From Terriglobales bacterium (GTDB lineage: Bacteria; Acidobacteriota; Terriglobia; Terriglobales; Acidobacteriaceae), in NCBI GenBank assembly GCA_035651995.1, contig DASRER010000002.1, positions 62,001-126,000 of the forward strand: 64,000 bases of DNA, read 5' to 3'. The position numbers and the translations under genes are program-made. Of the stretch, positions 2,272 to 62,164 are shown one piece after another (position 1 is the first letter of the stretch; each line of letters starts with the position of its first letter). A model generated the notes under the pieces. It was given only the letters and a program-made list of their open reading frames with translations, was not told where the DNA came from and searched no databases.

Positions 2272-2948
2272 CGCGCCGCCGCCCCCTCAACGGTTTGTTC
2301 GTCCAACCGCTGCCGCGCGCGCTCCAGTTGATACCGCAGCGCGATCAGCAGCAGGGCAAAACACGTAAACGCCAGCCAGTTCCACAGTACCGGCGGCCAC
2401 ATCGAGGGATCGAGCCCCGAGCCCTCGCCGCCGCCGATCACCGGCTGTGGATGCTGCGTGCGGAAAATGCGGTTCGACACGTACACCAGCGGCACGTCCA
2501 CGAACCCGAAGACGGCCAGCACCGCCGCCATCAGCGGCGCCTGTCCGCTTGTCGAGAACCGGCGCAGCACCAGATAGCTGATGTAGATGAGCCACATCAC
2601 CAGCGTTGTCGTAAGGCGCGCGTCCCACGTCCACCAGATGCCCCACACAGGCTTCGCCCACAGCATCCCCTGGATCAGCACCGTGGTGCAGAACACCACG
2701 CCGACCTCCGCCGACGCCGCCGCCACCGCATCGCTTTTGCCGTCGCGCCTGGCCAGGTACACGAGCGACGCGATGAAGTTGGCGAAGAAGCAGGCGAAGG
2801 CCGTCATCGCCGAGCCGAAGTGGTAATAGAAGATGCGCTGCACGTCGCCCATCGTGCTCTCGGTCGGCGCCACCTCCAACCCCTGGTACAGCCCCCAGGA
2901 GAGCAGTGCCAGCGTGAGCACGGCGAAGATCGTGGTTTTGTTTTTCAT
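2268..2948 (-). CDS. ccmC: CcmC haem transporter/handling protein of cytochrome c maturation
   Basis: 226 residues with six membrane helices. The tryptophan-rich haem-handling WWD motif is present as WGIWWTWDARLT, and a conserved His occurs in FYYHFGSAM before it. CcmC presents haem to the chaperone CcmE on the periplasmic side. The gene overlaps ccmB by four bases upstream and ccmD by three or four downstream, so the operon is tightly packed. The length matches the family. Confidence 0.94.
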   Translation of the reverse strand: MKNKTTIFAVLTLALLSWGLYQGLEVAPTESTMGDVQRIFYYHFGSAMTAFACFFANFIASLVYLARRDGKSDAVAAASAEVGVVFCTTVLIQGMLWAKPVWGIWWTWDARLTTTLVMWLIYISYLVLRRFSTSGQAPLMAAVLAVFGFVDVPLVYVSNRIFRTQHPQPVIGGGEGSGLDPSMWPPVLWNWLAFTCFALLLIALRYQLERARQRLDEQTVEGAAAR

Positions 2949-3640
2949 TCTGCGTTGAGCACAGTCTCAAACAGCAGCAGACACACCGTGGTAAACACCA
3001 CGTCGTAGACCCCGAGCAGTTCTATCCAGAAGCGCGCCGACCCGTCGCCGGTCAGCACCAGCGTGGTGGCCGAAACCATGCCCAGGATCGCCGGCAGCGA
3101 AATCGGAAACAGCAGCAGCGGCAGCATGACCTCGCGGCTTCGCGTCCGCAGCGAGAGCGCGGCGAAAAACGTCCCGTTCACCACCAGCGCCCACGTTCCC
3201 ATCATCGCAATGGCGATGAGCTGCTCCGGCGGCCCCACCGAGCGCAGGTTGTAGAACACGATGAACAGCGGCGCCATCACCGCTTCCAGCAAGACCACGA
3301 AGAGAAAGTTGCCCGCAGCTTTTGCCAAAAACAGCGCATTCGCCGGCGCCGGCGACGCCCTGAATCCATCGAGCACCTGGTTGTGCATCTCGCGCGCCCA
3401 GGTCTGGTTCAGCGCCACGACCGACGCAAACAGAAACGACGTCCAGATCAGACCGCCCGCGATTTTGCGCGACTCTTCCGCTGTGGGATCGAAGGCGAAG
3501 CTGAAGATGACCACCACCAGCAGCCCGAAGAAGATCATCGAGTTGATGGCGTCTTTGGAGCGCCACTCGAGCCGGAGGTCCTTGGCGAGGCTGGCGCGCG
3601 TGATCGTGAGCAGGGCGCTCACAAGTCGTCGCTCCTCCAC
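2945..3640 (-). CDS. ccmB: CcmB, membrane subunit of the haem maturation ABC complex
   Basis: 231 residues, about six membrane helices, matching CcmB in length and pattern (KDLRLEWRSKDAINSMIFFG near the N-terminus). With CcmA and CcmC it forms the ABC-type complex that releases haem-loaded CcmE. The start overlaps the 3' end of ccmA by about 20 bases and the stop overlaps ccmC by four, so the subunits are translated together. Confidence 0.93.
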   Translation of the reverse strand: MEERRLVSALLTITRASLAKDLRLEWRSKDAINSMIFFGLLVVVIFSFAFDPTAEESRKIAGGLIWTSFLFASVVALNQTWAREMHNQVLDGFRASPAPANALFLAKAAGNFLFVVLLEAVMAPLFIVFYNLRSVGPPEQLIAIAMMGTWALVVNGTFFAALSLRTRSREVMLPLLLFPISLPAILGMVSATTLVLTGDGSARFWIELLGVYDVVFTTVCLLLFETVLNAE

Positions 3641-4371
3641 TCCATGCGCAGCGATACGGTGGAGGTAAACTGCGCGCTTCGGGCCGGAGCGCTGCCCCCC
3701 TGGTCGGTAATGCGCCCGGCTTCCATGCTGACGTAGTTGTCGGCCACGCCATCCAGCAGCGCCGGCTGGTGCGTGATCAGGACCACCGTGCGTCCGGCGT
3801 CGCGCAGCGTGGCAAGCGCGTCCACCATGTGCTGCGCCGATCCTGGGTCCACGTTCGAAAACGGTTCGTCGAGCAGCAGTAGCGCCGGATCGTGAACGAT
3901 CGCGCGCGCCAGCGACAACCGTTGCCGCATTCCCTGCGAGTACTGACCTACGCGGCGCCGCAGCTTGGGATCGAGTTGCACCGCTTCGATCACATCGTGG
4001 CAGCGGCGCTCATCGTCAATTCCGTACAGGCAGGCGGTGTAGCGCAGGTTCTCCAGCCCGCTGAGTTGGTCGTAAAGCAGCGGCGCGTGCGGCATATACC
4101 CGATGCGCTCGGCCATCTCGCGCAGGTCGGCGCTGCCGAACACGGCCACGCGTCCTCGCGTGGGCTTCATCAACCCGGCGATGATGCGCAACAGCGTGCT
4201 CTTCCCCGCCCCATTTTCCCCGACGATGACATGCAGCTTCCCTTGCGCGAAGTCGGCTGTCGCGTCGCGCAACGCGACGGAGGGGCCGAATACTTTGCTC
4301 ACCGCCGAAAGCTCGACGGCCGGCGTGGCGTCGCACGCTTGCTTGCGCGTGGAATAGTCCGATGTGCTCAC
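3619..4371 (-). CDS. ccmA: CcmA, ATPase subunit of the cytochrome c maturation ABC complex
   Basis: 250 residues with the chosen GTG start at 4371. That start overlaps the ccmE stop as GTGA, and the homology begins a few residues later (VELSAVSKVFG). Walker A is GENGAGKST, the ABC signature is YSQGMRQRLSLARAI, and Walker B is LLLLDEP. The longer open frame up to 4506 runs antisense to nothing useful and lies inside ccmE, so it is rejected as a start. CcmA hydrolyses ATP to free holo-CcmE from CcmC. The C-terminus extends about 20 residues past the usual NBD end. Confidence 0.93.
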   Translation of the reverse strand: MSTSDYSTRKQACDATPAVELSAVSKVFGPSVALRDATADFAQGKLHVIVGENGAGKSTLLRIIAGLMKPTRGRVAVFGSADLREMAERIGYMPHAPLLYDQLSGLENLRYTACLYGIDDERRCHDVIEAVQLDPKLRRRVGQYSQGMRQRLSLARAIVHDPALLLLDEPFSNVDPGSAQHMVDALATLRDAGRTVVLITHQPALLDGVADNYVSMEAGRITDQGGSAPARSAQFTSTVSLRMEWRSDDL

Positions 4372-13007: not shown

Positions 13008-13717
13008 CCGGATTGCGAAGCGGCCTTTCGCGGATCGGGATCGTCCATGCCCGACTTCGAGGCCAGCCAGTCGAAGAATGGTTTCTGCAAACGCATAGGA
13101 ATGTGCGTGAATCGGATGCCGCCCTGCAACTCGGGACTCAGCCACACGACTTCGCCCTTCACTTCCATCTTCAGCTTGATTTCGGTGACGGTGAATTCCA
13201 CCTGTCCCAGCCAGCCCACCTCGATCTTCCGGTCGAGCTGAAACGCGAGGCCGCCGCTGCTGACGTTGGTCACCGTGCCGCGGATCTCATTGTTTCCGGA
13301 AAGCAGCGACACGCCGAAGCTGACGGGAAGCCGGAAGTAACGGCGCCGCTCCTGAAGCATGAGGTTGCGCGCGGCGCGCAGGCTGCGGCCGAGCAGGTCA
13401 GGGGAAATGGGCCGCTCCAGGACAAAGTTCGCGCCCATTTCGGCGCGCTCGCGCGGAGTGCTTTCGCCGTCCACGATGGCGAACACGATCGCCCGCCGGT
13501 TGGGAGCGGAGGCGCGCACGGTTCGGAGGACTTCGGCGCCGTCTTCCACCTCGACGCAGTCCACCATGACGGCGTCAAACTTGGTCGCCTGGAGACGCGC
13601 CAGCGCATCGTCGGCAGCCGCGCACACGTTGGGATGAATGCCTGCGGACTCGAGGTGGTCAGTCAAAACCCGCAATAGAGTCGGGTTTCGGACCACCAGC
13701 AGGCACTCCAAAGTCAT
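13004..13717 (-). CDS. Receiver-like and PilZ domain protein (putative c-di-GMP effector)
   Basis: 237 residues. Residues 1-115 have the receiver fold with Asp in AVMVDCVE at the phospho-acceptor strand, though the acidic pocket near the N-terminus is replaced (LLVVRNPT), so phosphorylation is doubtful. Residues 120-220 are a PilZ domain with the RRxxR-type entry (ERRRYFRLP) and the NxSxxG motif (NVSSGG), which together bind cyclic di-GMP. The likely role is coupling c-di-GMP to motility or exopolysaccharide output. It stands alone, with no diguanylate cyclase nearby. Confidence 0.82.
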   Translation of the reverse strand: MTLECLLVVRNPTLLRVLTDHLESAGIHPNVCAAADDALARLQATKFDAVMVDCVEVEDGAEVLRTVRASAPNRRAIVFAIVDGESTPRERAEMGANFVLERPISPDLLGRSLRAARNLMLQERRRYFRLPVSFGVSLLSGNNEIRGTVTNVSSGGLAFQLDRKIEVGWLGQVEFTVTEIKLKMEVKGEVVWLSPELQGGIRFTHIPMRLQKPFFDWLASKSGMDDPDPRKAASQSG

Positions 13718-21383: not shown

Positions 21384-21665
21384 TTACCGAGTTGGCGCTC
21401 CGGGCGGGCCTTCGTCTTCTTCTACTCCCGCAAGGGCTTTGCGGCGCCGCTGGATCTCGCGCAGCTCCTTCATGATCTCGTTCTCGGCGGCGACGTACTG
21501 CTCTTCGTTGATCTCTCCCGATTCGAGCTGCACCTGCAATTCAAGCAGCCGCTCTTTGAGCGGCGCGTCGTCGGTCCACTGCTCTTCGGCCACGCGCTGC
21601 AGGGTGCGCATGATGAACTGAAAGCCGGTAATCGGGGCCAGCAGCAGATCGTCAATGAGAAGCAT
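21384..21665 (-). CDS. gvpG: Gas vesicle protein GvpG
   Basis: 93 residues. LLIDDLLLAPITGFQFI at the N-terminus and the following amphipathic, charged helix (LKERLLELQVQLESGEINEEQY, EIMKELREIQRR) match GvpG, a small helical accessory protein needed for gas vesicle assembly. It overlaps the stop of the preceding GvpF/L gene by one base (TGATG), so translation is coupled. It is the last gene of the cluster seen on this strand. Confidence 0.93.
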   Translation of the reverse strand: MLLIDDLLLAPITGFQFIMRTLQRVAEEQWTDDAPLKERLLELQVQLESGEINEEQYVAAENEIMKELREIQRRRKALAGVEEDEGPPGAPTR

Positions 21666-22591
21666 CAGCCCGCCGTTCCGCGCTCCAGCTTGAGCCGGAT
21701 GTTCACAAAATTGTACGGCGGCCAGGGACCGGTGTACTTGAAGTTCAGCCGGTCGCCGTATTTCTTGGCAATCTTGTTCACCGCCTCATCGAACTGCGCC
21801 TCCTTGTCTTTCTGGATGAGGAAGGCGGCGTTCATGATCATTTTGTCGCCAATCGGCTTGTTGTCGCGCGAAGCGACGCACACGCCGCGCAGTCCGTCAT
21901 AGATTTCGCGAACGTACTGCGCCGAGCGCTCCACCATGGCCTTGTCGATCATGCGGCCCAGCTGCATGCGGGCGAAGTAGGTGGATTGCAGGTGCTTGCG
22001 CGTAATTTCCTGGTGGAAGCGGTGGATCTCTTCATCATCGCGCTTGAGTTCGTCGATGATGCGCTCGCGGTCCCAGGTGACCTTGAGTCCGAATTCCAAC
22101 TTGCCGGCCATCTGCTTGAGGACATCTTTCAGCGACGGATAAATGCCGCGCAGCACCTCGAGAATGTCGTCTTCGGTGCGGAAGATGGTGCCGAAACTCA
22201 TGGGAATGATGGTGTGGTTCTTCATCACGTTTTCGATCACATGTTCGTGGGCGAGCGCATTTTCCCGCGTTGGATCGAAGATGAAGACGCTGGTGCGGCT
22301 GACGACGGCTGCGATGTCGTTGTAGTGCACGGTATAAACCATGTCACCGAGGCCGCCGATGCCGATCTTGCCGAACGAGATGGGCTCGCGCGTCTGGATG
22401 ACGCCGTACACGTAGCGGCCGGCGCTGGATGCCGCCGCGGCGGGCGCCGGCATGCGCTCCACTTGGGCCAGCACCGCGGCGCCGGCTCCGCCTGCTCCTG
22501 AGACGAGCACCGGGCTCTCTTCCGCCTGCTTAGCGCTGCGTGCCGCAGCCGGTCTCTTGCGGTTATTCGCCGCTTGCTTTTGCTTGGCCAT
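21665..22591 (-). CDS. Gas vesicle protein GvpF/GvpL, with basic N-terminal extension
   Basis: 308 residues with the ATG at 22591, placed by GGGAGACGGA directly upstream. About 58 N-terminal residues form an Ala/Lys/Arg-rich extension that precedes the GvpF/L domain (RYVYGVIQTREP). Family blocks are present: LAHEHVIENVMKNHTIIPMSFGT, and the C-terminal signature TGPWPPYNFV. GvpF/L proteins are accessory or minor shell proteins that contact GvpA during nucleation. The start lies inside the 3' end of the receiver gene (29-base overlap). It is one of three GvpF/L paralogues in the cluster. Confidence 0.93.
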   Translation of the reverse strand: MAKQKQAANNRKRPAAARSAKQAEESPVLVSGAGGAGAAVLAQVERMPAPAAAASSAGRYVYGVIQTREPISFGKIGIGGLGDMVYTVHYNDIAAVVSRTSVFIFDPTRENALAHEHVIENVMKNHTIIPMSFGTIFRTEDDILEVLRGIYPSLKDVLKQMAGKLEFGLKVTWDRERIIDELKRDDEEIHRFHQEITRKHLQSTYFARMQLGRMIDKAMVERSAQYVREIYDGLRGVCVASRDNKPIGDKMIMNAAFLIQKDKEAQFDEAVNKIAKKYGDRLNFKYTGPWPPYNFVNIRLKLERGTAG

Positions 22592-22958
22592 TTCCGTCTC
22601 CCAGTAAAGCAGAAATAGTCGTAAAGAATTGCTCAATATCAATCGGCTTGAACAGCAGCGGGATGTTCCGCGTTCCCGCCTTCTCCGCCGCGTCCATGGT
22701 GGCGTAGCCGGTCAGCAGCGCGGCCAGCAGCCCGGGATCGCGCTGGCGGCCAAAATCCACTACGTCGAAACCGCTGTACTGCTCCTCGAGCGACAGGTCG
22801 CAAAGCAGCAGGTCGAATGTGGAGGTCTCAAGAATTCGCATCGCTTCGCGGGCGGAGAGCACCGCCGTGACGTCGTAACCCTGCTGCTCGAGCAGCAGAC
22901 GGTAGGTCAGCAGCACCGACGGCTCGTCATCAACCACCAGAATGTGCGACTTGCCCAT
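22563..22958 (-). CDS. Stand-alone response regulator receiver inside the gas vesicle cluster
   Basis: 131 residues from the ATG at 22958 (MGKSHILVVDDEPSV); a GTG at 22988 could add ten residues. This is a receiver domain only, with the acidic pair VVDDE, phospho-acceptor Asp in LLLCDLSLEEQYSG and Lys in LLFKPID. It has no output domain, so it must act by protein contact, like CheY or Spo0F. It follows the histidine kinase gene and overlaps the next gvpF/L gene by 29 bases. The kinase is the obvious partner. Its place in the operon links it to vesicle assembly or to a phosphorelay. Confidence 0.88.
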   Translation of the reverse strand: MGKSHILVVDDEPSVLLTYRLLLEQQGYDVTAVLSAREAMRILETSTFDLLLCDLSLEEQYSGFDVVDFGRQRDPGLLAALLTGYATMDAAEKAGTRNIPLLFKPIDIEQFFTTISALLGDGNGQAKASGE

Positions 22959-23014
22959 ATTCGTGTTCTTTAGAACCGCTGCCGCCACGATTGGTCACGC
23001 CGCAAGGCGCCGCG

Positions 23015-25141
23015 TCAGCGCACGATCGGCAACTCGATACGAAATACAGTGCCCCGGCCTACCTTGCTTCGGACCCGGATCTTGCCGCTGTGGTTCTCAA
23101 GTATGCCCTTCACAATCCACAGACCCAGCCCCGTCCCTCGTTCGCCCTTGGTCGTGTAGAACGGCTCGAAGATGGTGGCGATCGAACTGGGCGGGATGCC
23201 GGTGCCGGTGTCGGCGATGGTGATGCGGATGGTGCCGTGCACGCTGTCGGGGCGCGAAACATGCCGGGTACGGATGCGCAGCCGGCCGCCATCGGGCATG
23301 CTGTCGCGCGCATTCACGATGAGATTGGAGAGAATCTGCCGGAACTGGTCGGCCGAGCCCAAAATCGGCGGCATCGGCTTCAACGAATTCTCAACCCGCA
23401 CGCCGGCGCGCTCCAGTTGCCGCGCAAACAATGCGAGCGTGTCTTCCACCAGCGAGTTGATGTCCACGTTGGTGACCTGCTCGCTGTGCCGATACAGGCC
23501 GAGCATCTGGCGGGTGATGCGCGCCACGCGCTCGGTTTCCTTCTTGAGAATGTCGTAGATGGGCTGGCCGTGAGGCTCGACCATGGAACCCATCAGGTAG
23601 ATGGAGTTCTTGATCGCCTCCATTGGGTTGTTGATCTCGTGGGCGATGGTGCCGGCCAGGCGCCCGGTGGCGGCAAACTTCTCAATCTCCAGAATGCGGC
23701 GCTCCATCTTCAACTGCTCGAGTTTGCGGAGCGCCGTGAAGTCGCGCAGCACGGTGACGGTATACGAAACCTGCCCGCGTTCGTCGTAGATCTTGCCGGA
23801 GCGCGCGTCGTAGTCCACTTCCGTCTGCAGCGTGGGGTTGAACAGGCGCAGCGGCGCGCTTTCCTTGTGGCTGAAAGCGTAAGTAAAGGTGGTGACGTAG
23901 GCCTCGAAGCGGGCGAGGTTCTTCATCTGTTCGGGGGTGCGAACAGCGTCCTCTTCTTCGGCCCCGAACAGCTCGCGCGCCAGCGGGTCGAGGAGCACGA
24001 ACTTGGCGTTACTGTCGCAGACGGCGATGGGATCGCCCACGTTTTCGACGATGAGGTTGAGGCGATCGCGGTCCTGGCGGACGACTTCCTCGGCAGTGCG
24101 CAGGCGGTCGTAGTTGCTGCGCAACTCCTCGTCGGCGCGGCGCAGATCGGTGACGTCGCGCATCACGGTGACCATGCCCACGCGGACGCCATCGCGCGTT
24201 AGCGTCGGCGCGCAAACGGCCTCGAACAGCACTTCGTCGCCCTCGATGGCGTCAACCAGGGTCAGGTCGCGGGAGCTTTCCGCGTCCGAAACGGCCATCG
24301 AAGACAGCGCCGCGGAAAACAGCAGGTTGTTCAGTTCGACGGCGTGGGCTAGGCCCTCGGTGACTTCTTCGGGCAGCTTGAAGAAGCGCGCCGCGGCGCG
24401 GTTCTGGAGCAGCACCCGATGCTGCGCGTCGGTAAGGATGACCGGGTCGGGCATGCTCTGCATCACGGTGTTCAACTGCGCGATGGTGGTTTCCATGTCG
24501 CGCATGCGGTTGAAGTAATGCTCGACCTTGAAGAGCCGCGCCAGGTAGCGGTTGGCCAGTTCGGCGACGGCGCGCAGCTCCATCATCTCGCGCTCCATCC
24601 CGCGCGCGGGAACTTCCACGGCTACCAGCGCCGCGTAGGAACGCATGTCGCACACCTGGCAGACCTGTTCGTTGAGGCTGAGCCGGCGCGTGTGGTTCTG
24701 GTTGAGGACGGCCAGGCAATCGGCGGAGCGATGATCGCGCTCGGCTTCCCAGCAGGGACGCCGGTTGTTGTAGATCAGCGGATGGACGTAAAGCTTGCGG
24801 TTGCGATTGTAGGCAATGGTCGCCGGCGTGAATTCATGCAGGGCCGAGAGAACCGGCGCATCGGACCAGAGCGATACCCGGAAATAATCCTGTAGCGGCC
24901 GGGGACAGTTCAACGAAGCCACGGGACGGACCGTGGCGGACTCGAAGTCAACCTCGGCCACCAGAGCACGCGAAAAACCCAGCGCGAGAATCTCCTCCAG
25001 CAGCACGGGAAAGATTTCTTCAGCGCGTTCGGCTCCGAGCAGCCGCAGCGCCGCTCTCCGGCGGTGTCGCGCCAGATCGCTGTCCCCGTTCTGCCGTTCT
25101 ACGCTGCTGTTTTGACGAGCGCGTAGCATCGGGGTCGCCAT
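23015..25141 (-). CDS. Soluble GAF-like/PAS histidine kinase inside the gas vesicle cluster
   Basis: 708 residues without membrane helices. Residues about 30-190 look like a GAF-type sensor region carrying Cys79, Cys130, Cys142, Cys161 and Cys164 (the last two as CQVC). Two PAS domains follow (about 225-340 and 355-465; MQSMPDPVILTDAQHRVLLQN and IVENVGDPIAVCDSNAKFVLL). The HisKA motif is GTIAHEINNPMEAI and the HATPase boxes are NLIVNARDSMPDGG, DTGTGIP and GTGLGLWIV. The signal is unknown; the cysteines allow redox, metal or Fe-S sensing. It starts 21 bases after gvpA and precedes the receiver gene, so the pair is co-transcribed with vesicle genes. Confidence 0.9.
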   Translation of the reverse strand: MATPMLRARQNSSVERQNGDSDLARHRRRAALRLLGAERAEEIFPVLLEEILALGFSRALVAEVDFESATVRPVASLNCPRPLQDYFRVSLWSDAPVLSALHEFTPATIAYNRNRKLYVHPLIYNNRRPCWEAERDHRSADCLAVLNQNHTRRLSLNEQVCQVCDMRSYAALVAVEVPARGMEREMMELRAVAELANRYLARLFKVEHYFNRMRDMETTIAQLNTVMQSMPDPVILTDAQHRVLLQNRAAARFFKLPEEVTEGLAHAVELNNLLFSAALSSMAVSDAESSRDLTLVDAIEGDEVLFEAVCAPTLTRDGVRVGMVTVMRDVTDLRRADEELRSNYDRLRTAEEVVRQDRDRLNLIVENVGDPIAVCDSNAKFVLLDPLARELFGAEEEDAVRTPEQMKNLARFEAYVTTFTYAFSHKESAPLRLFNPTLQTEVDYDARSGKIYDERGQVSYTVTVLRDFTALRKLEQLKMERRILEIEKFAATGRLAGTIAHEINNPMEAIKNSIYLMGSMVEPHGQPIYDILKKETERVARITRQMLGLYRHSEQVTNVDINSLVEDTLALFARQLERAGVRVENSLKPMPPILGSADQFRQILSNLIVNARDSMPDGGRLRIRTRHVSRPDSVHGTIRITIADTGTGIPPSSIATIFEPFYTTKGERGTGLGLWIVKGILENHSGKIRVRSKVGRGTVFRIELPIVR

Positions 25142-25162
25142 GTGGCCATGCCTCCACGCCGA

Positions 25163-25456
25163 TTAGCGGCGGCCGGCGGCCCTCCGTTGGGTTCGCGCAG
25201 GACGCGGAGTTTCAATGACGGTTTCCTCGGCCACCGACTCCAGTTGCGGACGCGACACGATGCCGGTAAGACCAACGGCGTCGGCGTACTTGAGGTAAGT
25301 GTCGATGGACGCGACCACGACGCGCGCCTCAACCGTGATCAGATCGATGCCGACGAGGGAGATGCGCACCCAGGCGTCAATGACGATGCCCTTGTCGAGT
25401 ACCCGATCAAGGACGTCAATAAGACTCGAACCGCCAGATACCCGTTCAACAGCCAT
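25163..25456 (-). CDS. gvpA: Major gas vesicle shell protein GvpA
   Basis: 97 residues. The core [49 protein letters not shown] is the nearly invariant GvpA coil-alpha-beta-beta-alpha fold that polymerizes into the gas-permeable, water-excluding shell. The C-terminus is extended by about 30 residues ending in an Arg/Ala-rich stretch ([10 protein letters not shown]). The ribosome binding site GGAGGACCGGA directly before the ATG is the strongest in the cluster, as expected for the most abundant product. It follows the gvpJ gene by 33 bases. Confidence 0.96.
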
Positions 25457-25489
25457 TCCGGTCCTCCATTGCGACGTGCCGCCTTGCTC

Positions 25490-25816
25490 TTACCCGCGCC
25501 GTGTTCTCGAAGGTCGAGAAGCAGTCGGCGCTGGCCGCCTTCGCGCTCCCGGCGCGGGAGAAGGCAGCGCTTGTCGTACCTTGGGAGTCGGCCCGACCGC
25601 GGTTGTCAGGTGCGGGTCGTACTTCCACCAGTTCAGGCCGATCTGCTCCGCCTTATCCACCGAGCAAACGAGCAGCCTGATTCGAATGGTCAGCAATTCC
25701 ACGTTCGCGAGGGAGATACGAACGTCGCCCGCTATCACCAGACCCTTGTCCAGCACCCGGTCAAGGATGTCGAGCAGGTTGGTTGTGCCGGAGACAGTCG
25801 GAACGCGGGTATCCAT
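25490..25816 (-). CDS. gvpJ: Gas vesicle GvpJ-type minor shell protein
   Basis: 108 residues. The GvpA-family core [52 protein letters not shown] differs from GvpA and matches GvpJ (AGD..ISLANVELLTIRIR and ending in NWW). GvpJ sits at vesicle tips and helps nucleation. The last 40 residues are a Pro/Arg-rich tail (PAPGARRRPAPTASRPSRTRRG). A good sigma-70 promoter lies 57-85 bases upstream. Confidence 0.88.
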   Translation of the reverse strand: MDTRVPTVSGTTNLLDILDRVLDKGLVIAGDVRISLANVELLTIRIRLLVCSVDKAEQIGLNWWKYDPHLTTAVGPTPKVRQALPSPAPGARRRPAPTASRPSRTRRG

Positions 25817-25872
25817 AGTTTTGTTTTCTAGGGAGACTACTGTCCGGCTGAAACCTTGAACCGAACCGTTGG

Positions 25873-25901
25873 ATGCTAATCAGACCAGAATTGGCTGTCA
25901 A
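25873..25901 (-). promoter_or_regulatory. Sigma-70 promoter upstream of gvpJ-gvpA
   Basis: On the minus strand TTGACA (25896-25901) and TAGCAT (25873-25878) are separated by exactly 17 bases. Transcription would start near 25866, giving a leader of about 50 bases before the gvpJ ATG. It lies in the 158-base gap after gvpK, the largest gap in the cluster, and would give separate strong expression of gvpJ-gvpA-kinase-receiver-gvpF/L-gvpG. Confidence 0.65.
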
Positions 25902-25974
25902 CCGGCGGGAAGAAAATGCCCAACGGCAACTGGCTTGAAATTCAGCTACTTACAATCAACAGCGGCCTGCCGGC

Positions 25975-26349
25975 CTATTTTTCAACCAAATTTCCCACAG
26001 GCCCAAGATTGATGTTGAGCACCTCCAGGTCCTCCGGACGAAGGCCGAATTCTCTCGCCATTTCGCGGACCTTTTGCTCGAGCCTCATCAGCGCGAGACC
26101 CATCTGCTCAACCTGCTCGTCGGTCAGCGAACCTCCTTCCATGCGGCGAATCGCCTGGCGCTCCAGCACTTGACGCAGCAATTCCACCAGGCCAAGCACG
26201 AGCCGCGCGACTCCCTGCTCCACGTTTTCCGGCGAGCAGTCGATGCGGCTCGCGGCACGCTGCTGCGACTGCTCGAGCGAGCGGCGAAAATCCGCCACCG
26301 CCGCTTCGATCTCTTCCGGCGAAAGGCGCCGAGGCTCGCTGTCGCTCAT
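25975..26349 (-). CDS. gvpK: Gas vesicle protein GvpK
   Basis: 124 residues with the ATG at 26349, which overlaps the stop of the upstream gvpL-type gene (ATGA). The body is helical, with the GvpK pattern (RIDCSPENVEQGVARLVLGLVELLRQVLERQAIRRMEGGSL, then EQVEQMGLALMRLEQKVREM). GvpK is an accessory protein required for vesicle formation. A longer open frame to 26562 lies entirely inside the neighbour and is rejected. Confidence 0.93.
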   Translation of the reverse strand: MSDSEPRRLSPEEIEAAVADFRRSLEQSQQRAASRIDCSPENVEQGVARLVLGLVELLRQVLERQAIRRMEGGSLTDEQVEQMGLALMRLEQKVREMAREFGLRPEDLEVLNINLGPVGNLVEK

Positions 26350-27014
26350 CGCGGACCCTCCTCCAGCCGGACTGCCTCCACGGCGGCGAGTGGAGCCTCG
26401 TTCAGCTTCATGAATTCGGCTGGCGGCCACGGCCCGCTGACCAGCGCGCGCAACGTCTTGGGCAGGTTCACGCGCAGCATTTGATCCCGGAATTCCGCAG
26501 CGGCATCGAGTTCGATAAGCGCGTAGCAGCGAAGTTTCTCTTGTTGCTCGCTCTCCTTCCATGCCCGGGCGCAGACGCCTCGCCGCAGCGCCGTGACCGC
26601 CTCACGCAGCGCCGCTCTGCGTTCGCGGATGCGGTCCAGGTATTCGCGGCCCGAAGTCGTTTCGCCGGCGGGCGGTGTGAAGGTGAGGGCCGCGTCCATC
26701 TGCGCTAGCCCGCGAAAGTACTGGAGAGCGCGCCGGTAGGCAGCGGCATGCTGCGCGATGAAGCTGCGCAGGTCCTCCTCCGTCGCCACGGGATGGCCGA
26801 AGCGGAACGGGACGGTCTGCGCCTGGGCGAAAACCGAGCTTATCAGCCGCTGAAACTCGAGTGCCGCCTCCGTGGGCATTTTCTGCGGCTCCCACGGTGA
26901 GTAGAAACAACGCACGCCGTCCGCGTGGAGTTCGCGTACTTCGGCGCCGGCCACGCCGCGCCCGGGCGCGCGCACGTCTGCCTCGCTTTCGACGACGCAA
27001 TAGCAAAGGAACAT
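26346..27014 (-). CDS. Gas vesicle protein GvpF/GvpL (second paralogue)
   Basis: 222 residues without a basic extension. It starts with a strand typical of the domain (MFLCYCVVES), followed by PFRFGHPVATEEDLRSFI and the C-terminal block LVSGPWPPAEF, the family signature. The N-terminal half is more divergent than in the other two copies. It overlaps gvpK by four bases. Which of the three copies fills the GvpF or the GvpL role cannot be decided from sequence. Confidence 0.9.
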   Translation of the reverse strand: MFLCYCVVESEADVRAPGRGVAGAEVRELHADGVRCFYSPWEPQKMPTEAALEFQRLISSVFAQAQTVPFRFGHPVATEEDLRSFIAQHAAAYRRALQYFRGLAQMDAALTFTPPAGETTSGREYLDRIRERRAALREAVTALRRGVCARAWKESEQQEKLRCYALIELDAAAEFRDQMLRVNLPKTLRALVSGPWPPAEFMKLNEAPLAAVEAVRLEEGPR

Positions 27015-27057
27015 CGGAACAAAGGAAGCGGGAAAACCGCCTTCCTTGACTCGGTAC

Positions 27058-27288
27058 TCAGTATTCGCTGCTCGGTACTTTCTTTTCCAGATGCCTGAGC
27101 GCGGTCTCCACCGAGGTTACCACTGCGTTCAGCCCAACGTAGACCAGGTCGACGCCGGCGAGGGAGATGACGATGCTGCCGTGGATGACCACGCCGGAAT
27201 TGAGCACGTGGTCGAGGATCTCGACGAGAGAAACGTCGTCCTGACCGTCGCTGCCGACGAACACCACCTGCGAGGAGTTGGCCGCCAT
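27058..27288 (-). CDS. GvpA-family minor protein (GvpS/GvpM-like)
   Basis: 76 residues with the ATG at 27288, one base after the stop of the upstream GvpF/L gene and preceded by GGGAG. The core SLVEILDHVLNSGVVIHGSIVISLAGVDLVYVGLNAVVTSVETALRHLEK belongs to the GvpA superfamily, but the second half (ISLAGVDLVYVGL) fits GvpS/GvpM rather than GvpA or GvpJ. These are minor, probably nucleating proteins. The ORF continues upstream to 27576, but only antisense-like sequence is added. Confidence 0.88.
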   Translation of the reverse strand: MAANSSQVVFVGSDGQDDVSLVEILDHVLNSGVVIHGSIVISLAGVDLVYVGLNAVVTSVETALRHLEKKVPSSEY

Positions 27289-27289
27289 G

Positions 27290-28255
27290 CTATCTCCCGC
27301 TCTGGCGCGTGCTCCGCGAGGCCTTCTTGCCGGACCCGTTCGGCGAAGTGCGCGGCTCGTTGACGAAGGAGTAGGGTGGCCAGGGGCCGGTGGATTCGAT
27401 GCGCGCCCCGCCCAGCCGTCCCGCGAAGCGCTGCAGCACGGCTTGGAAGCGGCGCGCTTCGGTGCGGCGCACCAGATAAGCGCCCTGCCAGAGCAATCCG
27501 GGCTGGCCGGCGCGCGGACCGGCGACGGCGTCAACGGAAACGTCGCGCAGGGCTTCGGCGAAGGCGTCAATTTCAACCGGCAGCGCCCGGCCCCGCTGCT
27601 GCAGCATAGTGGACTTCTGCCGCAGGTAGTCGGCGCCGCTCTGCGCCTGCACCGGCGCCGCGTTGGGGCCGACTTCTGAAAACACCTTCACGCCCCATTC
27701 CTCGGTTCCGGCGAGGCGGCGCAGCGTGGCGTTCACAAAGCTCTTCTGCTCCTGGACGTGCTTGCGCAAAGAGGCGTGCGAGAGAAACACCGATCCGAAG
27801 CGCGTGGGAAGCAGGTCAAGCTGCTGCGCGAGCGCGCCGACAACTTTCTGGTGCCGGACGCTGGCGCCGGCAAGCCAGTCGAGGTTCTGCATGTTCTGCT
27901 CGAGTCGCTCGGCGTATTCGCCGCGCTCCACGCGGCTGATCCAGCAGAGGAGGCCGCCGCAGGAGACGGTCTCGACGGCCGAAGCGCCGTCAATGCCGGA
28001 AACAGCATCGGGCCGGACGGCGGGACGCCCGCGACTGATGCCGTAGAGATAGAGCGCTTTTGCCGGCGCGGCTGGCGCGGGCTTGGGCGCCACACGGGCC
28101 GAACGCGGCCGTGGCCTTGGCCTTGGCCTGCGCCGCGCGGCAACACTGCGCCGGCGAAGCCGGGTTTTTCCGGCGGCGGGTCGCGATGGCCTGCGCCGAG
28201 CAGGCGGACCAGTCTTCCTGCCAGCTGTGCGGCGCGATTTCAGTCGACCTGCCAT
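27290..28255 (-). CDS. Gas vesicle protein GvpF/GvpL (third paralogue) with Arg/Pro-rich N-terminus
   Basis: 321 residues from the ATG at 28255, which lies 16 bases inside the ArsA-like gene. The first 65 residues are extremely basic (KTRLRRRSVAARRR, RPRPRPRPRS). The GvpF/L domain then starts at KALYLYGISRG. The family blocks LDLLPTRFGSVFLS, EEWGVKVFSE and STGPWPPYSFV are present. The basic region could bind nucleic acid or a negatively charged surface; this is inference. It is the second gene of the cluster. Confidence 0.92.
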   Translation of the reverse strand: MAGRLKSRRTAGRKTGPPARRRPSRPAAGKTRLRRRSVAARRRPRPRPRPRSARVAPKPAPAAPAKALYLYGISRGRPAVRPDAVSGIDGASAVETVSCGGLLCWISRVERGEYAERLEQNMQNLDWLAGASVRHQKVVGALAQQLDLLPTRFGSVFLSHASLRKHVQEQKSFVNATLRRLAGTEEWGVKVFSEVGPNAAPVQAQSGADYLRQKSTMLQQRGRALPVEIDAFAEALRDVSVDAVAGPRAGQPGLLWQGAYLVRRTEARRFQAVLQRFAGRLGGARIESTGPWPPYSFVNEPRTSPNGSGKKASRSTRQSGR

Positions 28256-30174
28256 AAGCGGCGTGTGAAGGCCTGCAATCGCCGTTTGCCGGCAACCTCG
28301 CCGGGCGCTTCCGCGACGACCAGCAGGTCGCGCCCGTGATGGCGGCTGCGCAACGACGCAAGTGTCGCCATCTGCCACCGGCGCGCGCTCTGGCAACGGC
28401 GGCAGTTTCGAACCGACTCCGGTAGCAAGACGCGATTGACGACCAACGGGCCGGAGGGCGCGTGCATGCCGTGTAGTGCGCCCAGCAGACGTGCGGTTTC
28501 GCGATCGGGCAGCGGCTCGGCCAGCATGATCGGCCACACGCTAACCTGGCGCGGATCACGCAACATGCGGCCCAGCTCGCGCGCCCGCTGCTCCACGGCG
28601 GCAATCTCCACCGCCAGATCACGGACCAGCGGTAGTCTACGGTGCGGGGCCAGGGTTTTCAACAGGAGGCGGGCCCATCCCTCCATTCGGGCGGGCGTCC
28701 GGAGGAGTTCCAAGGCGTGGCCGGTTGGCGCCATATCTATGATAATGAACTGTTTACCGGACCGGACCAAATCGAGGATGCGGAAGGCGGCAAACAGCTC
28801 GTCCACGCCCGGCGGGACAACGTCGAGCAGGGCCTCGAGGACCCGGCGCTCGTAGCTCAGATCAACATGGACGCCGCCACGCGTTTCGGCGGTGAGCGCC
28901 GCGCCGATCTGCCGCCGCACGCCCGCGCTCCAGCGGGCAAACTCGGCAACGGCGTCGGCTTCGACGGCCTGGAATTTCGGGTCGCCGAGCACCGCGTGAG
29001 GCTGATCGGCGATTTCGGCTTCGAAGACGTCGTCGAGGGATGGGGCGGGATCGGTCGAGCACAGCACGACGGGAATTGACTTCCTGCGCTGGCGCTGACG
29101 AAATGCCAGCGCCGCCGAAATTGTTGTTTTGCCGACGCCGCCTTTGCCGAGTGTGAAGGCGAGAGGGACGTCGGGCGAGGGCCACGGGGCTGCGGTCAGT
29201 CTGACCTCCGGCGCGCGCGTGGGCCCAGGAGCGGCGGGAAGCTTGCCGCCCTGAAATACGTGACGGCCGAACTCGGCCAGCGACTTCGGTCCGAGCATGG
29301 GGCCGCCGGGATCCTCGCCAATCACGATCGGGAGCTTGGGAAACTCGCGCGCCAGAAACGTCCTGGCCGCGCGAGCTGCGCGGACGCGAGCCAAGCAATG
29401 ATTGCACTTCCGTCCGGCGGCGACGACGGCGCGATTCAGGACAATGCGCGCGATGTCCATCGTAGGCGCGCTGGCAGCCAGTTCCCGGCGCACGCGGACG
29501 GATTCCTGCAGCGAGAAATTTTCCGGCGTGGTGACCAGCACAAGCTCAGCTTGACCGGCGCTGAGGGCCTGACGGACTTCTGCGACCATGCGCTCCCATT
29601 GAGTCACGACCGGCGGAACGGCGATGGTGGTGTGGGCGAAGGTTTCGGCCAGAACGCGATCGCGGCCGGCGGCGGTCTGAAGAAAATGGAGGAAGCGCGC
29701 GAGGTGCTCGGGTAATTGGAACAGGCGCAGCGTGTGCCCAATGGGCGCGGTGTCGACAACGATTTCGTCGTAGTCGCCGCGGGCCGCCAGGCGATGCAAT
29801 GCGACCAGGGCGGCGACCTCGGCCATGCCGGGCAGCGTGGCGTCGAGCAACGGTTCGATCTCGGCGGCGGTGAAGATGGTCGCGCTCTCGATCAGCTCCA
29901 GCAGCGCGCCGCGCTGTCGCTTCAGGAAACGGGCAAATTCCTTTGAGGCATTGATTTCCCACGCCCACAGACGCGTGCCGGGGCCGAGGCGGACCGCCGT
30001 CGGCTGGTCTCCAAGCTTCTGCTGCAGGACATCGGCCAGTGAGTGTGCCGGGTCGGTGGACATGAGCAGCACGCGTCGGCGGGGCTGCTGACGCGCCGTG
30101 TAAGCGGCATAGGACGCGGAGACGGTCGTCTTCCCCACACCGCCCTTGCCGATGAAGAACGTGAGCCGCGCCAT
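28240..30174 (-). CDS. Tandem ArsA/Get3-like ATPase heading the gas vesicle cluster
   Basis: 644 residues, two fused deviant-Walker-A ATPase domains. Walker A copies are GKGGVGKTTVS (residues 9-19) and GKGGVGKTTIS (343-353). The ArsA/Get3 switch motif occurs twice (DTAPIGHTLRLF at 141 and DMAPTGHALELL at 480). Each half carries one CxxC (C257-C260 and C591-C594), as in Get3-type targeting factors, where it binds zinc. The cluster has no arsenite-pump gene (arsB), so an arsenic role is not supported. A role as chaperone or assembly ATPase for the hydrophobic Gvp proteins is inferred. It is the first gene of the cluster and overlaps the next gene by 16 bases. Confidence 0.85.
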   Translation of the reverse strand: MARLTFFIGKGGVGKTTVSASYAAYTARQQPRRRVLLMSTDPAHSLADVLQQKLGDQPTAVRLGPGTRLWAWEINASKEFARFLKRQRGALLELIESATIFTAAEIEPLLDATLPGMAEVAALVALHRLAARGDYDEIVVDTAPIGHTLRLFQLPEHLARFLHFLQTAAGRDRVLAETFAHTTIAVPPVVTQWERMVAEVRQALSAGQAELVLVTTPENFSLQESVRVRRELAASAPTMDIARIVLNRAVVAAGRKCNHCLARVRAARAARTFLAREFPKLPIVIGEDPGGPMLGPKSLAEFGRHVFQGGKLPAAPGPTRAPEVRLTAAPWPSPDVPLAFTLGKGGVGKTTISAALAFRQRQRRKSIPVVLCSTDPAPSLDDVFEAEIADQPHAVLGDPKFQAVEADAVAEFARWSAGVRRQIGAALTAETRGGVHVDLSYERRVLEALLDVVPPGVDELFAAFRILDLVRSGKQFIIIDMAPTGHALELLRTPARMEGWARLLLKTLAPHRRLPLVRDLAVEIAAVEQRARELGRMLRDPRQVSVWPIMLAEPLPDRETARLLGALHGMHAPSGPLVVNRVLLPESVRNCRRCQSARRWQMATLASLRSRHHGRDLLVVAEAPGEVAGKRRLQAFTRRLWQVD

Positions 30175-30303
30175 GGCGCGCATTCTATGCGCCTTCGGCC
30201 CTCTCTTGGCGGAGGTTGGTCCACCATTGACCTGCCTCGTCTTTGGCGCCTGCGCAGGCTGTTGCCTTCACCCGGTGCGGCAAAGTGGAATTTCCCCTCC
30301 CGC

Positions 30304-60847: not shown

Positions 60848-62164
60848 ATGGCGAAGAAGAAAAACAATTCGTCAGAGGGACGCGCCGGTGGCAACGGACG
60901 CAGCTCGCGACCGGCGGCAAGTCGCGCGGCGAAGCCTTCGCCAAACGGCGCGGGCACTGCGCAGCGCAGCTACAGCATAGCCGACTGGCGGCTAGAGCGG
61001 CCGGACTTCCGGGTCGCCATGGTCAGCGACAGCAAGGGCGTGCGCTACGAAGTGCGTGGCGACCTTTCGGCGCCGCCACCGCCAATCCGCGATTCCAAGT
61101 ACCTGACGCGCGAGCAGTGCATTGAGATCTACCGCTGGATGCTGCTCAACCGGCGCATGGAGCAGGCGCTTGAGAACCTCTACAAACAGGGAAAAGTTGT
61201 AGGCGGCGTGTACTTCGGCCTGGGGCAGGAGGGGTGCTCGTGCGCCTCAGCGTACGCGCTGAAGGAAGATGACTGGTTCGGTCCGATGATCCGCAACCAG
61301 GGCGCGCTGCTGGTGCGCGGCTGGCGCGCGCGCGACGTCATGATGCAATACATGGCCAAGGCCGATTCGCCCAGTCGCGGCAAAGACGCGAACACACATT
61401 TCGGCGACATCATCAATCGGAACCAGGTCGCGCCCATTTCCATGCTCGGCGACCACGTTCCGATCCTCGCCGGCGTTGCGCTGGGCGCGCGCATTCAGGG
61501 CCGGAACATTGCGTGTCTCACCTGGCTGGGCGATGGCGGACAGTCCACTGGCCCGACCTACGAGGGCTTCAATTTCGCGGCGGTCCAGAAACTTGGTGTG
61601 GTGCTGATCGTGGAGAGCAACCTATGGGCGTACTCGACGCCGACGGAAATGCAGGTTGGCGTGCGCGACCTCGCTGAACGTGCCATCGGGTACGGCGTGC
61701 CGGGCGTGATTGTGGATGGAACCGATCCATGCCAGGTCTATGACGCGACGCATGAGGCTTGCGAGCGCGCGCGACGCGGCGAGGGCGCCACGCTGATCGA
61801 AGCCAAGATGATGCGCATGAAAGGACATGCCATTCACGACGCCGCAGCATACGTTCCGCAGCCGCTGTTCGAGTACTGGCGTAAACGTGATCCGATCGGG
61901 CGCTTCGAAGCGTACCTGCTGCAAAAGGGCTGGTTGAGTGCGAAGGACAACACAGCGCTCATTGCCGACGTGGAGCGCGAGCTCGAAGAAGACCGCGAAT
62001 TTGCCGAGGAGTCCCCCATGCCGAAACCGGAGACGGCCGCGGCGGGCGTTTACTGCGAAGCGGGCTGCCACAATATTCCGGTGAAGTACGGCAAAGTCAA
62101 AATGAAGGACCAGCGCGCAGCAGCAAAGGTCAAGGAAACCGAAGCTGCGCTGCATTTCAAATAG
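60848..62164 (+). CDS. 2-oxoacid dehydrogenase E1 component, alpha subunit
   Basis: 438 residues. A Lys/Arg/Ala-rich extension of about 60 residues precedes the E1 alpha domain (EQCIEIYRWMLLNRRMEQALENLYKQGKVVGG). The TPP motif is GDGGQSTGPTYEGFNFA, with the family NQ..LL and conserved PTEMQVGVRDLAERAIGYG following. It decarboxylates pyruvate or branched 2-oxoacids together with the beta subunit in the next gene, six bases away. The substrate specificity (pyruvate or branched-chain) cannot be told. A Cys/His-containing stretch near the C-terminus (YCEAGCHNIPVKYG) is unusual. Confidence 0.92.
   Translation: MAKKKNNSSEGRAGGNGRSSRPAASRAAKPSPNGAGTAQRSYSIADWRLERPDFRVAMVSDSKGVRYEVRGDLSAPPPPIRDSKYLTREQCIEIYRWMLLNRRMEQALENLYKQGKVVGGVYFGLGQEGCSCASAYALKEDDWFGPMIRNQGALLVRGWRARDVMMQYMAKADSPSRGKDANTHFGDIINRNQVAPISMLGDHVPILAGVALGARIQGRNIACLTWLGDGGQSTGPTYEGFNFAAVQKLGVVLIVESNLWAYSTPTEMQVGVRDLAERAIGYGVPGVIVDGTDPCQVYDATHEACERARRGEGATLIEAKMMRMKGHAIHDAAAYVPQPLFEYWRKRDPIGRFEAYLLQKGWLSAKDNTALIADVERELEEDREFAEESPMPKPETAAAGVYCEAGCHNIPVKYGKVKMKDQRAAAKVKETEAALHFK

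What the first reader, a model, noticed from the sequence alone, without database searches (positions are those of the whole stretch)
21384..30174. Acidobacterial gas vesicle cluster lacking GvpN and GvpO, with an embedded two-component system
The sequence shows GvpA, GvpJ, a GvpS/M-like protein, GvpK, GvpG and three GvpF/L paralogues in one tightly overlapping run, together with a histidine kinase and a receiver between gvpA and the last gvpF/L gene. GvpN (AAA+ ATPase) and GvpO, frequent in other clusters, are not in the window; an ArsA/Get3-like ATPase leads the run. The order suggests that the kinase pair either senses a signal that sets buoyancy or acts on assembly. I know of no description of this layout, but have not searched.
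Basis: partly seen in the sequence, partly recalled or inferred. Interest (0 to 1): 0.85.

Follow-up and report, generated by a model that had tools for sequence, protein, structure and literature searches.

The report
Gas-vesicle operon with its own kinase
A soil bacterium carries genes for gas-filled buoyancy structures together with a sensor kinase whose core is found almost only beside such genes, which suggests a dedicated, so far undescribed switch for making gas vesicles.

Summary
Window 21384-30183 (minus strand) reads ArsA-gvpF/L-gvpS-gvpF/L-gvpK, then gvpJ-gvpA-histidine kinase-receiver-gvpF/L-gvpG; neither GvpN nor GvpO was found in the 99.35%-complete genome. The layout, often circularly permuted, recurs. 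Of 91 distinct loci with the kinase's PAS-PAS core, 89 carry gvp genes (two are cut at a contig end), none shows GvpN, and a gvpA-type gene is nearest upstream in 81. Titles name five phylum-level groups. In 396 Acidobacteriota genomes the core gives eight strong matches, then a sharp drop; seven lie in gvp loci. The eighth genome has no gvpA; its kinase lost 9 of 47 invariant PAS1 residues but 1 of 72 in the catalytic half. In the window's lineage the sensor GAF domain has an almost invariant four-cysteine motif. The receiver has no DNA-binding domain. ArsA in gas-vesicle clusters was described in 2010; ten searches of an open-licence library showed no description of the kinase. Best reading: a dedicated kinase gating gas-vesicle formation. 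Signal and output are inferred.

The parts
28240..30183 (-). ArsA/Get3-type tandem ATPase, 647 aa, two P-loops, CxxC in both halves
   Evidence: PF02374 304 bits, TIGR00345 298 bits over cut-off 135, arsenical-pump equivalog TIGR04291 148 of 650; alignment A4
27290..28537 (-). gvpF/L paralogue 1 (start uncertain; frame overlaps the end of ArsA)
   Evidence: PF06386 138 bits on 27290-28270
27058..27288 (-). gvpS/M-like member of the GvpA family
   Evidence: PF00741 59 bits
26346..27014 (-). gvpF/L paralogue 2
   Evidence: PF06386 80 bits
25975..26349 (-). gvpK
   Evidence: PF05121 109 bits
25873..25901 (-). sigma-70-like promoter TTGACA-17-TAGCAT upstream of gvpJ, similar site in many relatives
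   Evidence: tool scan 10 of 12 matches; matching site in 16 of 25 same-family loci
25490..25816 (-). gvpJ
   Evidence: PF00741 64 bits
25163..25456 (-). gvpA, main shell protein
   Evidence: PRK09371 114.7 bits over cut-off 100; matches the solved gas vesicle structural protein 8gbs, E 1.6e-26
23015..25141 (-). cytosolic histidine kinase GAF-PAS-PAS-HisKA-HATPase, 708 aa
   Evidence: motifs HEINNP, DTGTGI and TGLGL located
24650..24754 (-). four-cysteine motif of the GAF domain (C130, C142, C161, C164)
   Evidence: in 35 of 36 Terriglobia-type kinases, 0 of 30 HEFRTP-type; invariant in the 22 aligned N-terminal domains
24299..24334 (-). PAS1 helix motif LNNLLFSAALSS, hallmark of the gvp-linked core
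22563..22958 (-). stand-alone receiver (DDE, CDLS, LTGY, LFKP motifs); no output domain found
   Evidence: PF00072 58 bits, nothing else over a cut-off
21665..22591 (-). gvpF/L paralogue 3
   Evidence: PF06386 250 bits
21384..21665 (-). gvpG
   Evidence: PF05120 60 bits

Best explanation
This is a GvpN-less gas-vesicle locus whose formation is gated by a dedicated cytosolic sensor kinase. Shown by sequence: the kinase gene follows gvpA, usually with a very short gap; gvpJ-gvpA-kinase-(receiver)-gvpF/L-gvpG has a promoter-like site of its own in many relatives; the kinase's PAS1-PAS2 core is nearly exclusive to gvp loci in Acidobacteriota and lies in gvp loci in every one of the 16 other records returned; its catalytic and phospho-acceptor motifs are intact; the receiver has no DNA-binding domain. 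Inferred: the GAF domain, which in Terriglobia carries an almost invariant four-cysteine motif, reads redox, oxygen or a metal; PAS1 supplies the gas-vesicle-specific input; phosphate passes to the stand-alone receiver, or to a hybrid kinase or receiver nearby in other lineages; this sets how much gas vesicle is made. Because I saw no transcription factor that goes with the cluster, I think control of assembly or another post-transcriptional step is about as likely as a relay to an unlinked regulator (the first two rivals below are these two sub-mechanisms). The ArsA/Get3-like ATPase probably serves a step that needs energy, such as holding hydrophobic Gvp proteins; it does not simply replace GvpN, since some GvpN clusters have both.
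For: 89 of 91 distinct core loci carry gvp genes, 0 of 91 GvpN (own profile); gap between the gvpA-type stop and the start of the kinase's open frame median 10 nt, at most 60 in 72 of 81. In the window's family, among gvpA genes that score 85 bits or more (a threshold that leaves out the three GvpN-type loci L032, L033 and L094, which lack the kinase), 25 of 26 assessable ones have it directly downstream by script; the 26th reaches a contig end, and there the kinase is seen as an open frame (L109). Core score is bimodal in 396 genomes: eight matches at E 3.4e-101 or better, one shortened gvp-linked copy at 5.3e-18, the rest 1.4e-14 or worse. 0 of 9 GvpN-positive genomes have a strong core match. 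Promoter-like site in 16 of 25 loci, 0 in each of 500 Markov-shuffled sets. Natural loss: genome G257 has no PF00741 gene, and its kinase lost 9 of 47 invariant PAS1 positions against 1 of 34 in PAS2 and 1 of 72 in the catalytic half, while at most 2 PAS1 positions are lost in 35 gvp-linked controls.
Against: No expression, phosphorylation or flotation data. Six of 14 GvpN-less genomes (G029, G042, G067, G170, G254, G286) have gvpK without a strong match to this kinase, so it is not required everywhere. The receiver is missing beside the kinase in 7 of 23 assessable family loci. G293 keeps the kinase but shows only one PF00741 gene, the gvpS-like one. G257 is one genome, its GAF domain is relaxed as much as PAS1 (4 of 21), and PAS1 against all the rest gives only p = 0.005. 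In the HEFRTP group kinase and GvpA distances do not correlate (rho 0.10, p 0.24). The strict promoter pattern was written after I had seen the sequences, the loci are related, and 9 of 25 lack the site. Exclusivity of the core outside Acidobacteriota was tested only among records that match one of two short patterns.
Confidence: 0.72

Rival explanations
1. Ordinary transcriptional control through an unlinked response regulator: the kinase and single receiver form a relay that ends on a DNA-binding regulator elsewhere, which switches the gvp promoters, as GvrA/B/C do for gvpA1 in Serratia. (One of two sub-mechanisms of the best explanation.)
For: Precedent: the Serratia gvrA-gvrC operon is needed for gvpA1 transcription, and transcription rises at low oxygen (passages of PMC4982088 and PMC6617781). 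Single receivers, and the REC-HK-REC hybrids that follow the kinase in loci such as L041, L132 and L144 (Pfam of L132), are typical relay parts (recalled).
Against: No DNA-binding regulator among the window's cluster genes; the upstream site is sigma-70-like, and a loose sigma-54 pattern matched in only 2 of 25 upstream regions, not in the window's. My profiles did not look for regulators in the other loci, so their absence there is not tested.
Confidence: 0.4
2. Direct control of assembly: the kinase or its receiver binds Gvp proteins, such as GvpF/L or unassembled GvpA, and stops or allows shell growth. (The other sub-mechanism of the best explanation.)
For: Close linkage without a regulator in the window's cluster; PAS1 is relaxed when gvp genes are lost; receiver and kinase domain differ between lineages while the PAS core is kept.
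Against: No interaction data; PAS1 could bind a small ligand; the GAF domain is relaxed in the same genome.
Confidence: 0.35
3. Hitch-hiking: the kinase has another task and stays beside gvpA by chance or operon inertia.
For: G257 keeps kinase and receiver, with intact H-box, after losing gvpA. Six GvpN-less genomes do without it.
Against: Conserved adjacency through circularly permuted gene orders; near absence of the core outside gvp loci in Acidobacteriota.
Confidence: 0.12
4. The locus does not make buoyancy vesicles at all; soil lineages use Gvp proteins for something else, with the kinase serving that.
For: PMC4982088 notes that the Streptomyces coelicolor cluster lacks gvpN, gvpV, gvpF2 and gvrA-C and that vesicles there may have another function or an essential protein may be missing (passage). 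GvpN loss gives tiny vesicles only in Haloferax (PMC9501494 passage).
Against: GvpA, J, S, K, G and three F/L proteins are all present in the window and recur in relatives; GvpA matches solved shell proteins.
Confidence: 0.2

Closest known systems
Serratia sp. ATCC 39006 gvp cluster with GvrA, GvrB, GvrC
   Same: Dedicated regulatory genes inside a gas-vesicle locus; oxygen is a cue there (passages)
   Different: Serratia uses a separate gvrA-gvrC operon with a sigma-54 NtrC-like activator and has gvpN; here a kinase sits in the gvpJ-gvpA run, without activator, sigma-54 site or gvpN. The Gvr sequences were not compared with this kinase
ArsA homologues in gas-vesicle operons (PMC2963123, Cluster 6, Ellin345)
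   Same: Two-domain ArsA (634 aa there, 647 here) with two F/L genes and J, K, M in an acidobacterium (passages)
   Different: In the passages seen that paper does not mention a kinase, and its acidobacterial gene list omits the gvpA-kinase-gvpF/L-gvpG half
Streptomyces-type gvp clusters
   Same: No gvpN (PMC4982088 passage)
   Different: No gvr regulators in S. coelicolor according to that passage; kinase linkage not compared here
Haloarchaeal GvpD/GvpE
   Same: Regulators that belong to the gas-vesicle system (PMC9501494 passage)
   Different: Activator and repressor proteins, not a phosphorelay

Membership tests
Bacterial gas-vesicle gene cluster | gvpA with gvpF/L, gvpG, gvpJ, gvpK, gvpS | tested here: met
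Bacterial gas-vesicle gene cluster | AAA+ ATPase GvpN, listed as conserved in all clusters by PMC9501494 (passage) | tested here: not met
   own genome below cut-off; the same model over cut-off in 9 of 22 relatives
Bacterial gas-vesicle gene cluster | GvpC | not tested
   no GvpC model was run
Bacterial gas-vesicle gene cluster | gas vesicles visible in cells | not testable with these tools
   needs microscopy
ArsA/Get3/TRC40 ATPases | deviant P-loop GKGGVGKTT and ArsA family score | tested here: met
   TIGR00345 298 vs 135 and PF02374 304 vs 24; P-loops in both halves
Arsenical pump-driving ArsA | equivalog score TIGR04291 | tested here: not met
   148 vs 650
Histidine kinase | H-box and HATPase motifs | tested here: met
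   PF02518 95 bits; HisKA 25.3, just under the cut-off of 26.9; HEINNP, DTGTGI, TGLGL present; model resembles kinase structures
Two-component system with DNA-binding regulator | output domain on the response regulator | tested here: not met
   receiver of 131 aa with PF00072 only over cut-off
Serratia Gvr regulators | NtrC-like sigma-54 activator in the locus | tested here: not met
   none among the window's cluster genes; no sigma-54-like site upstream of the window's gvpJ
Iron-sulfur or zinc GAF sensor | GAF fold with four ligating cysteines | tested here: inconclusive
   GAF fold: VIA-align Z 13.5, rmsd 3.7, 137 aligned; cysteines conserved; metal binding and the geometry of the cysteines could not be tested

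The most novel reading that the evidence does not exclude
The PAS1 domain of this kinase reads the state of gas-vesicle assembly itself, for example free GvpA or a GvpF/L complex, while the GAF domain with four cysteines reads redox or oxygen; the kinase would be an assembly checkpoint for an organelle, kept with the structural genes in several phyla and independent of any linked transcription factor.
Probability: 0.22. Interest if true: 0.88.

Novelty: new variant of a known kind. Interest (0 to 1): 0.62.

Why it matters
Why bacteria of soil and groundwater keep gas-vesicle genes, and how bacteria outside the few model groups decide to make vesicles, is open. A kinase whose core is found almost only beside gvp genes gives a handle: its ligand should tell what the vesicles are for. 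It also offers a compact, GvpN-free locus with a possible built-in switch for acoustic reporter engineering. One unnamed complete genome with the full locus (G419, a single contig of 5,650,368 bases) has the size that I recall for the cultured strain Koribacter versatilis Ellin345, so tests in a living strain look possible.

Tried and rejected
ArsA as a replacement for GvpN: rejected as a simple rule. L032, L033 and L094 have both GvpN and ArsA in one cluster, and L049 and L052, GvpN-less, show no ArsA in the fetched stretch.

A conserved cysteine sensor in all gvp kinases: rejected. The motif is confined to the Terriglobia-type kinases (35 of 51 HExNNP-type, i.e. 35 of the 36 that I call Terriglobia, and 0 of 30 HEFRTP-type).

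A sigma-54 promoter like Serratia's: not found in the window; a loose pattern matched in 2 of 25 upstream regions.

The kinase on plasmids: tblastn of the core in the plasmid collection found nothing. GvpO as first searched was uninformative and was repeated with genomes that hold it. The single-genome promoter and terminator scan is not above chance (2 vs 1.1 and 6 vs 7.5); only recurrence makes the gvpJ site credible.

Dropped rows: one search counts loci once per distinct kinase slice (91), since the two genome collections overlap; it does not include G257 (L176) or the shortened kinase of L034. One search returned the best 80 of 98 confirmed loci; the other 18 were not seen. For one search I left out, by eye from the list of 99, duplicates, and itself had dropped kinases cut by contig ends or split; 81 remained. 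For one search I chose 22 of the Terriglobia-type kinases. L081/L127 has the kinase in two frames and was not mended. In one search receiver hits under 60 bits were hidden, under 80. In one search only family loci with a gvpJ start that the script could set were used (25). In one search gvpA genes under 85 bits were left out, which removes the GvpN-type loci; that script also missed the receiver of L093, which one search places directly after the kinase (13186-13518).
Full report
WHAT IS THERE. The window is G000:C2:62001-126000 of a 3.66 Mb genome in 48 contigs, 99.35% complete. On the minus strand, from 30183 down to 21384, lie ArsA, gvpF/L, a gvpS-like gene, gvpF/L, gvpK, a gap of 158 bases, gvpJ, gvpA, a histidine kinase, a receiver, gvpF/L and gvpG. 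GvpN is below cut-off in the genome and GvpO gives no match; both models do find their genes in relatives.

HOW FAR IT RECURS. GvpK occurs in 23 of 396 Acidobacteriota genomes and in 33 of 150 genomes of the window's own family. Of the 23, GvpN is over cut-off in 9 and not in the other 14, the window's genome among them. Among the fetched loci most GvpN-less clusters share one gene order, in circularly permuted forms: ArsA-F/L-S-F/L-K-J-A-HK-(RR)-F/L-G in the window's family; F/L-G-ArsA-F/L-S-F/L-K-J-A-HK in loci such as L041; J-A-HK-RR-F/L-G-ArsA-F/L-S-F/L-K in loci such as L053 and L054. L042 (G170) is ordered differently, and L052 has no ArsA in its run.

THE KINASE IS TIED TO GAS VESICLES. 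I aligned the PAS1-PAS2 core and scanned the collection of one genome for each of 84,980 species: 98 confirmed relatives, 80 returned. By my tally of the record titles they are Acidobacteriota (64), Rokuibacteriota (6), Myxococcota (5: Labilithrix and other Myxococcales), 'Deltaproteobacteria' (3), Gemmatimonadetes (1) and one plain 'bacterium'. Each of the 16 outside Acidobacteriota has gvp genes in the fetched stretch. Pooled with the loci fetched by handle and counted once per kinase, 91 distinct loci remain: 89 have gvp genes, the other two (L136, L143) begin at the kinase; a gvpA-type gene is nearest upstream in 81; none shows GvpN; 54 of 65 with gvpK have ArsA. An independent search of 396 Acidobacteriota genomes with the core gave eight matches at E 3.4e-101 or better, then G376 at 5.3e-18 (a shortened kinase in a gvp cluster), then 1.4e-14 and worse. 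Seven of the eight are GvpK-positive genomes with the kinase in a gvp locus (for G317 it lies on another contig than gvpK, beside gvpJ and gvpA). The eighth, G257, is discussed below. None of the nine GvpN-positive genomes has a strong match. Against universality: six GvpN-less genomes (G029, G042, G067, G170, G254, G286) have no strong match. The wide scan can only see kinases that keep one of two short core patterns, so exclusivity outside Acidobacteriota is less well tested.

OPERON EVIDENCE. Between the gvpA-type stop and the start of the kinase's open frame the median gap is 10 bases (72 of 81 at most 60). Upstream of gvpJ a TTGACA-17-TAGCAT site lies at 25901-25873; a matching site occurs in 16 of 25 family loci examined and in none of 500 shuffled sets (a looser pattern: 16 of 25 against a mean of 0.07). 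The strict pattern was written after seeing the sequences and the loci are related, so the count is descriptive. In the window no terminator-like site lies on the minus strand from gvpA through the receiver.

DOMAINS. AlphaFold2 gives a GAF-PAS-PAS-HisKA-HATPase model (mean pLDDT 85, pTM 0.46, so domains rather than their arrangement can be trusted). The N-terminal domain alone (pLDDT 91.5) is a GAF fold (best VIA-align Z 13.5, rmsd 3.7, 137 aligned), although no Pfam model matched the window's N-terminal part. Kinase domains are of two sorts, HExNNP (51) and HEFRTP (30), on the same PAS core. In Terriglobia-type kinases (my label for the window and loci L065-L129) four cysteines (C130, C142, C161, C164 in the window) recur in 35 of 36, in none of 30 HEFRTP-type, and are invariant in the 22 N-terminal domains that I aligned, which are otherwise 43-55% identical to the window's. 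That they bind a metal or iron-sulfur cluster is inference. The receiver has the usual motifs and no output domain. It follows the kinase in 16 of 23 assessable family loci (15 by script, plus L093). In four of the seven without it (L067, L071, L073, L075) a receiver lies convergent just past gvpG; in L071 and L075 it carries a long extension.

A NATURAL EXPERIMENT. Genome G257 has no PF00741 gene but keeps kinase and receiver next to a gvpF/L-like frame. Relative to 36 gvp-linked kinases it lost 9 of 47 invariant PAS1 positions and 4 of 21 in GAF, but 1 of 34 in PAS2 and 1 of 72 in the catalytic half (PAS1 against the rest, p 0.005); leaving out each of 35 controls in turn, at most 2 PAS1 positions are lost. 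The four cysteines and the H-box are kept. This fits PAS1 being the part that needs the gas vesicle, with the kinase still working at something. It is one genome, and GAF is relaxed too.

CO-INHERITANCE. Kinase distances correlate with K, ArsA and F/L distances (Mantel rho 0.43-0.86, p 0.005, the least that 199 permutations allow) in the groups tested, and with GvpA distances overall (0.66) and in the HExNNP group (0.55), but not in the HEFRTP group (0.10, p 0.24). Common descent of the genomes alone could give such correlations; no species tree was compared.

WHAT IS KNOWN. ArsA in gas-vesicle operons, including Acidobacteria Ellin345, was reported in 2010 (PMC2963123, passages only). Dedicated Gvr regulators exist in Serratia (passages of PMC4982088, PMC11778176, PMC6617781). 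Ten searches, pairing gas vesicle or gvp terms with Acidobacteri, histidine kinase, ArsA, sensor kinase, Koribacter, two-component, response regulator, gvrB/gvrC and Rokubacteria, listed no paper that by title or abstract start describes this kinase. The library holds open-licence papers only, most listed papers were seen only as listings, and one list was cut at 20 of 36.

VERDICT. A real, recurrent gas-vesicle locus type with a dedicated sensor kinase; new variant of a known kind. The signal and the output are not shown.

Noticed in passing
L007 4938-5435 (genome contig C34): Orphan fourth gvpA-like gene near the contig start beside a large serine recombinase (2653-4182), followed by a frame without Pfam match; possibly a mobile gvp fragment.
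   Followed up: partly
L034 787-2085 (G376): Gvp-linked kinase of 432 aa that lacks the stretch from mid PAS1 through the phospho-acceptor helix but keeps GAF and ATPase parts; real or assembly deletion unknown.
   Followed up: no
L071 4461-5315, L075 4152-5168, L100 12944-13846, L101 4714-5520, L129 10324-11169: Receiver with a long C-terminal extension near gvpG; for L101 a weak, sub-threshold Rsbr_N match. May stand in for the missing receiver in some of these loci.
   Followed up: partly
L041 12915-14600, L132 10646-12304, L144 11542-13251: A REC-HK-REC hybrid follows the gvp-linked kinase, as in a phosphorelay (Pfam for L132 only).
   Followed up: no
L156 and L049/L151: Myxococcales and Sulfopaludibacter loci with kinase, receiver and gvpF/L but no gvpA/gvpJ upstream; G293 has only one PF00741 gene.
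   Followed up: partly
L078 9595-12466 (G475): Kinase follows gvpK directly, gvpJ and gvpA are missing from the run, and the genome shows one PF00741 gene only.
   Followed up: partly
L037 5493-7931: A PAS-GGDEF-EAL protein directly upstream of a GvpN-less gvp cluster without this kinase.
   Followed up: no
window 61203-61295: ARAGORN reports a tRNA-like gene with an undefined two-base anticodon.
   Followed up: no
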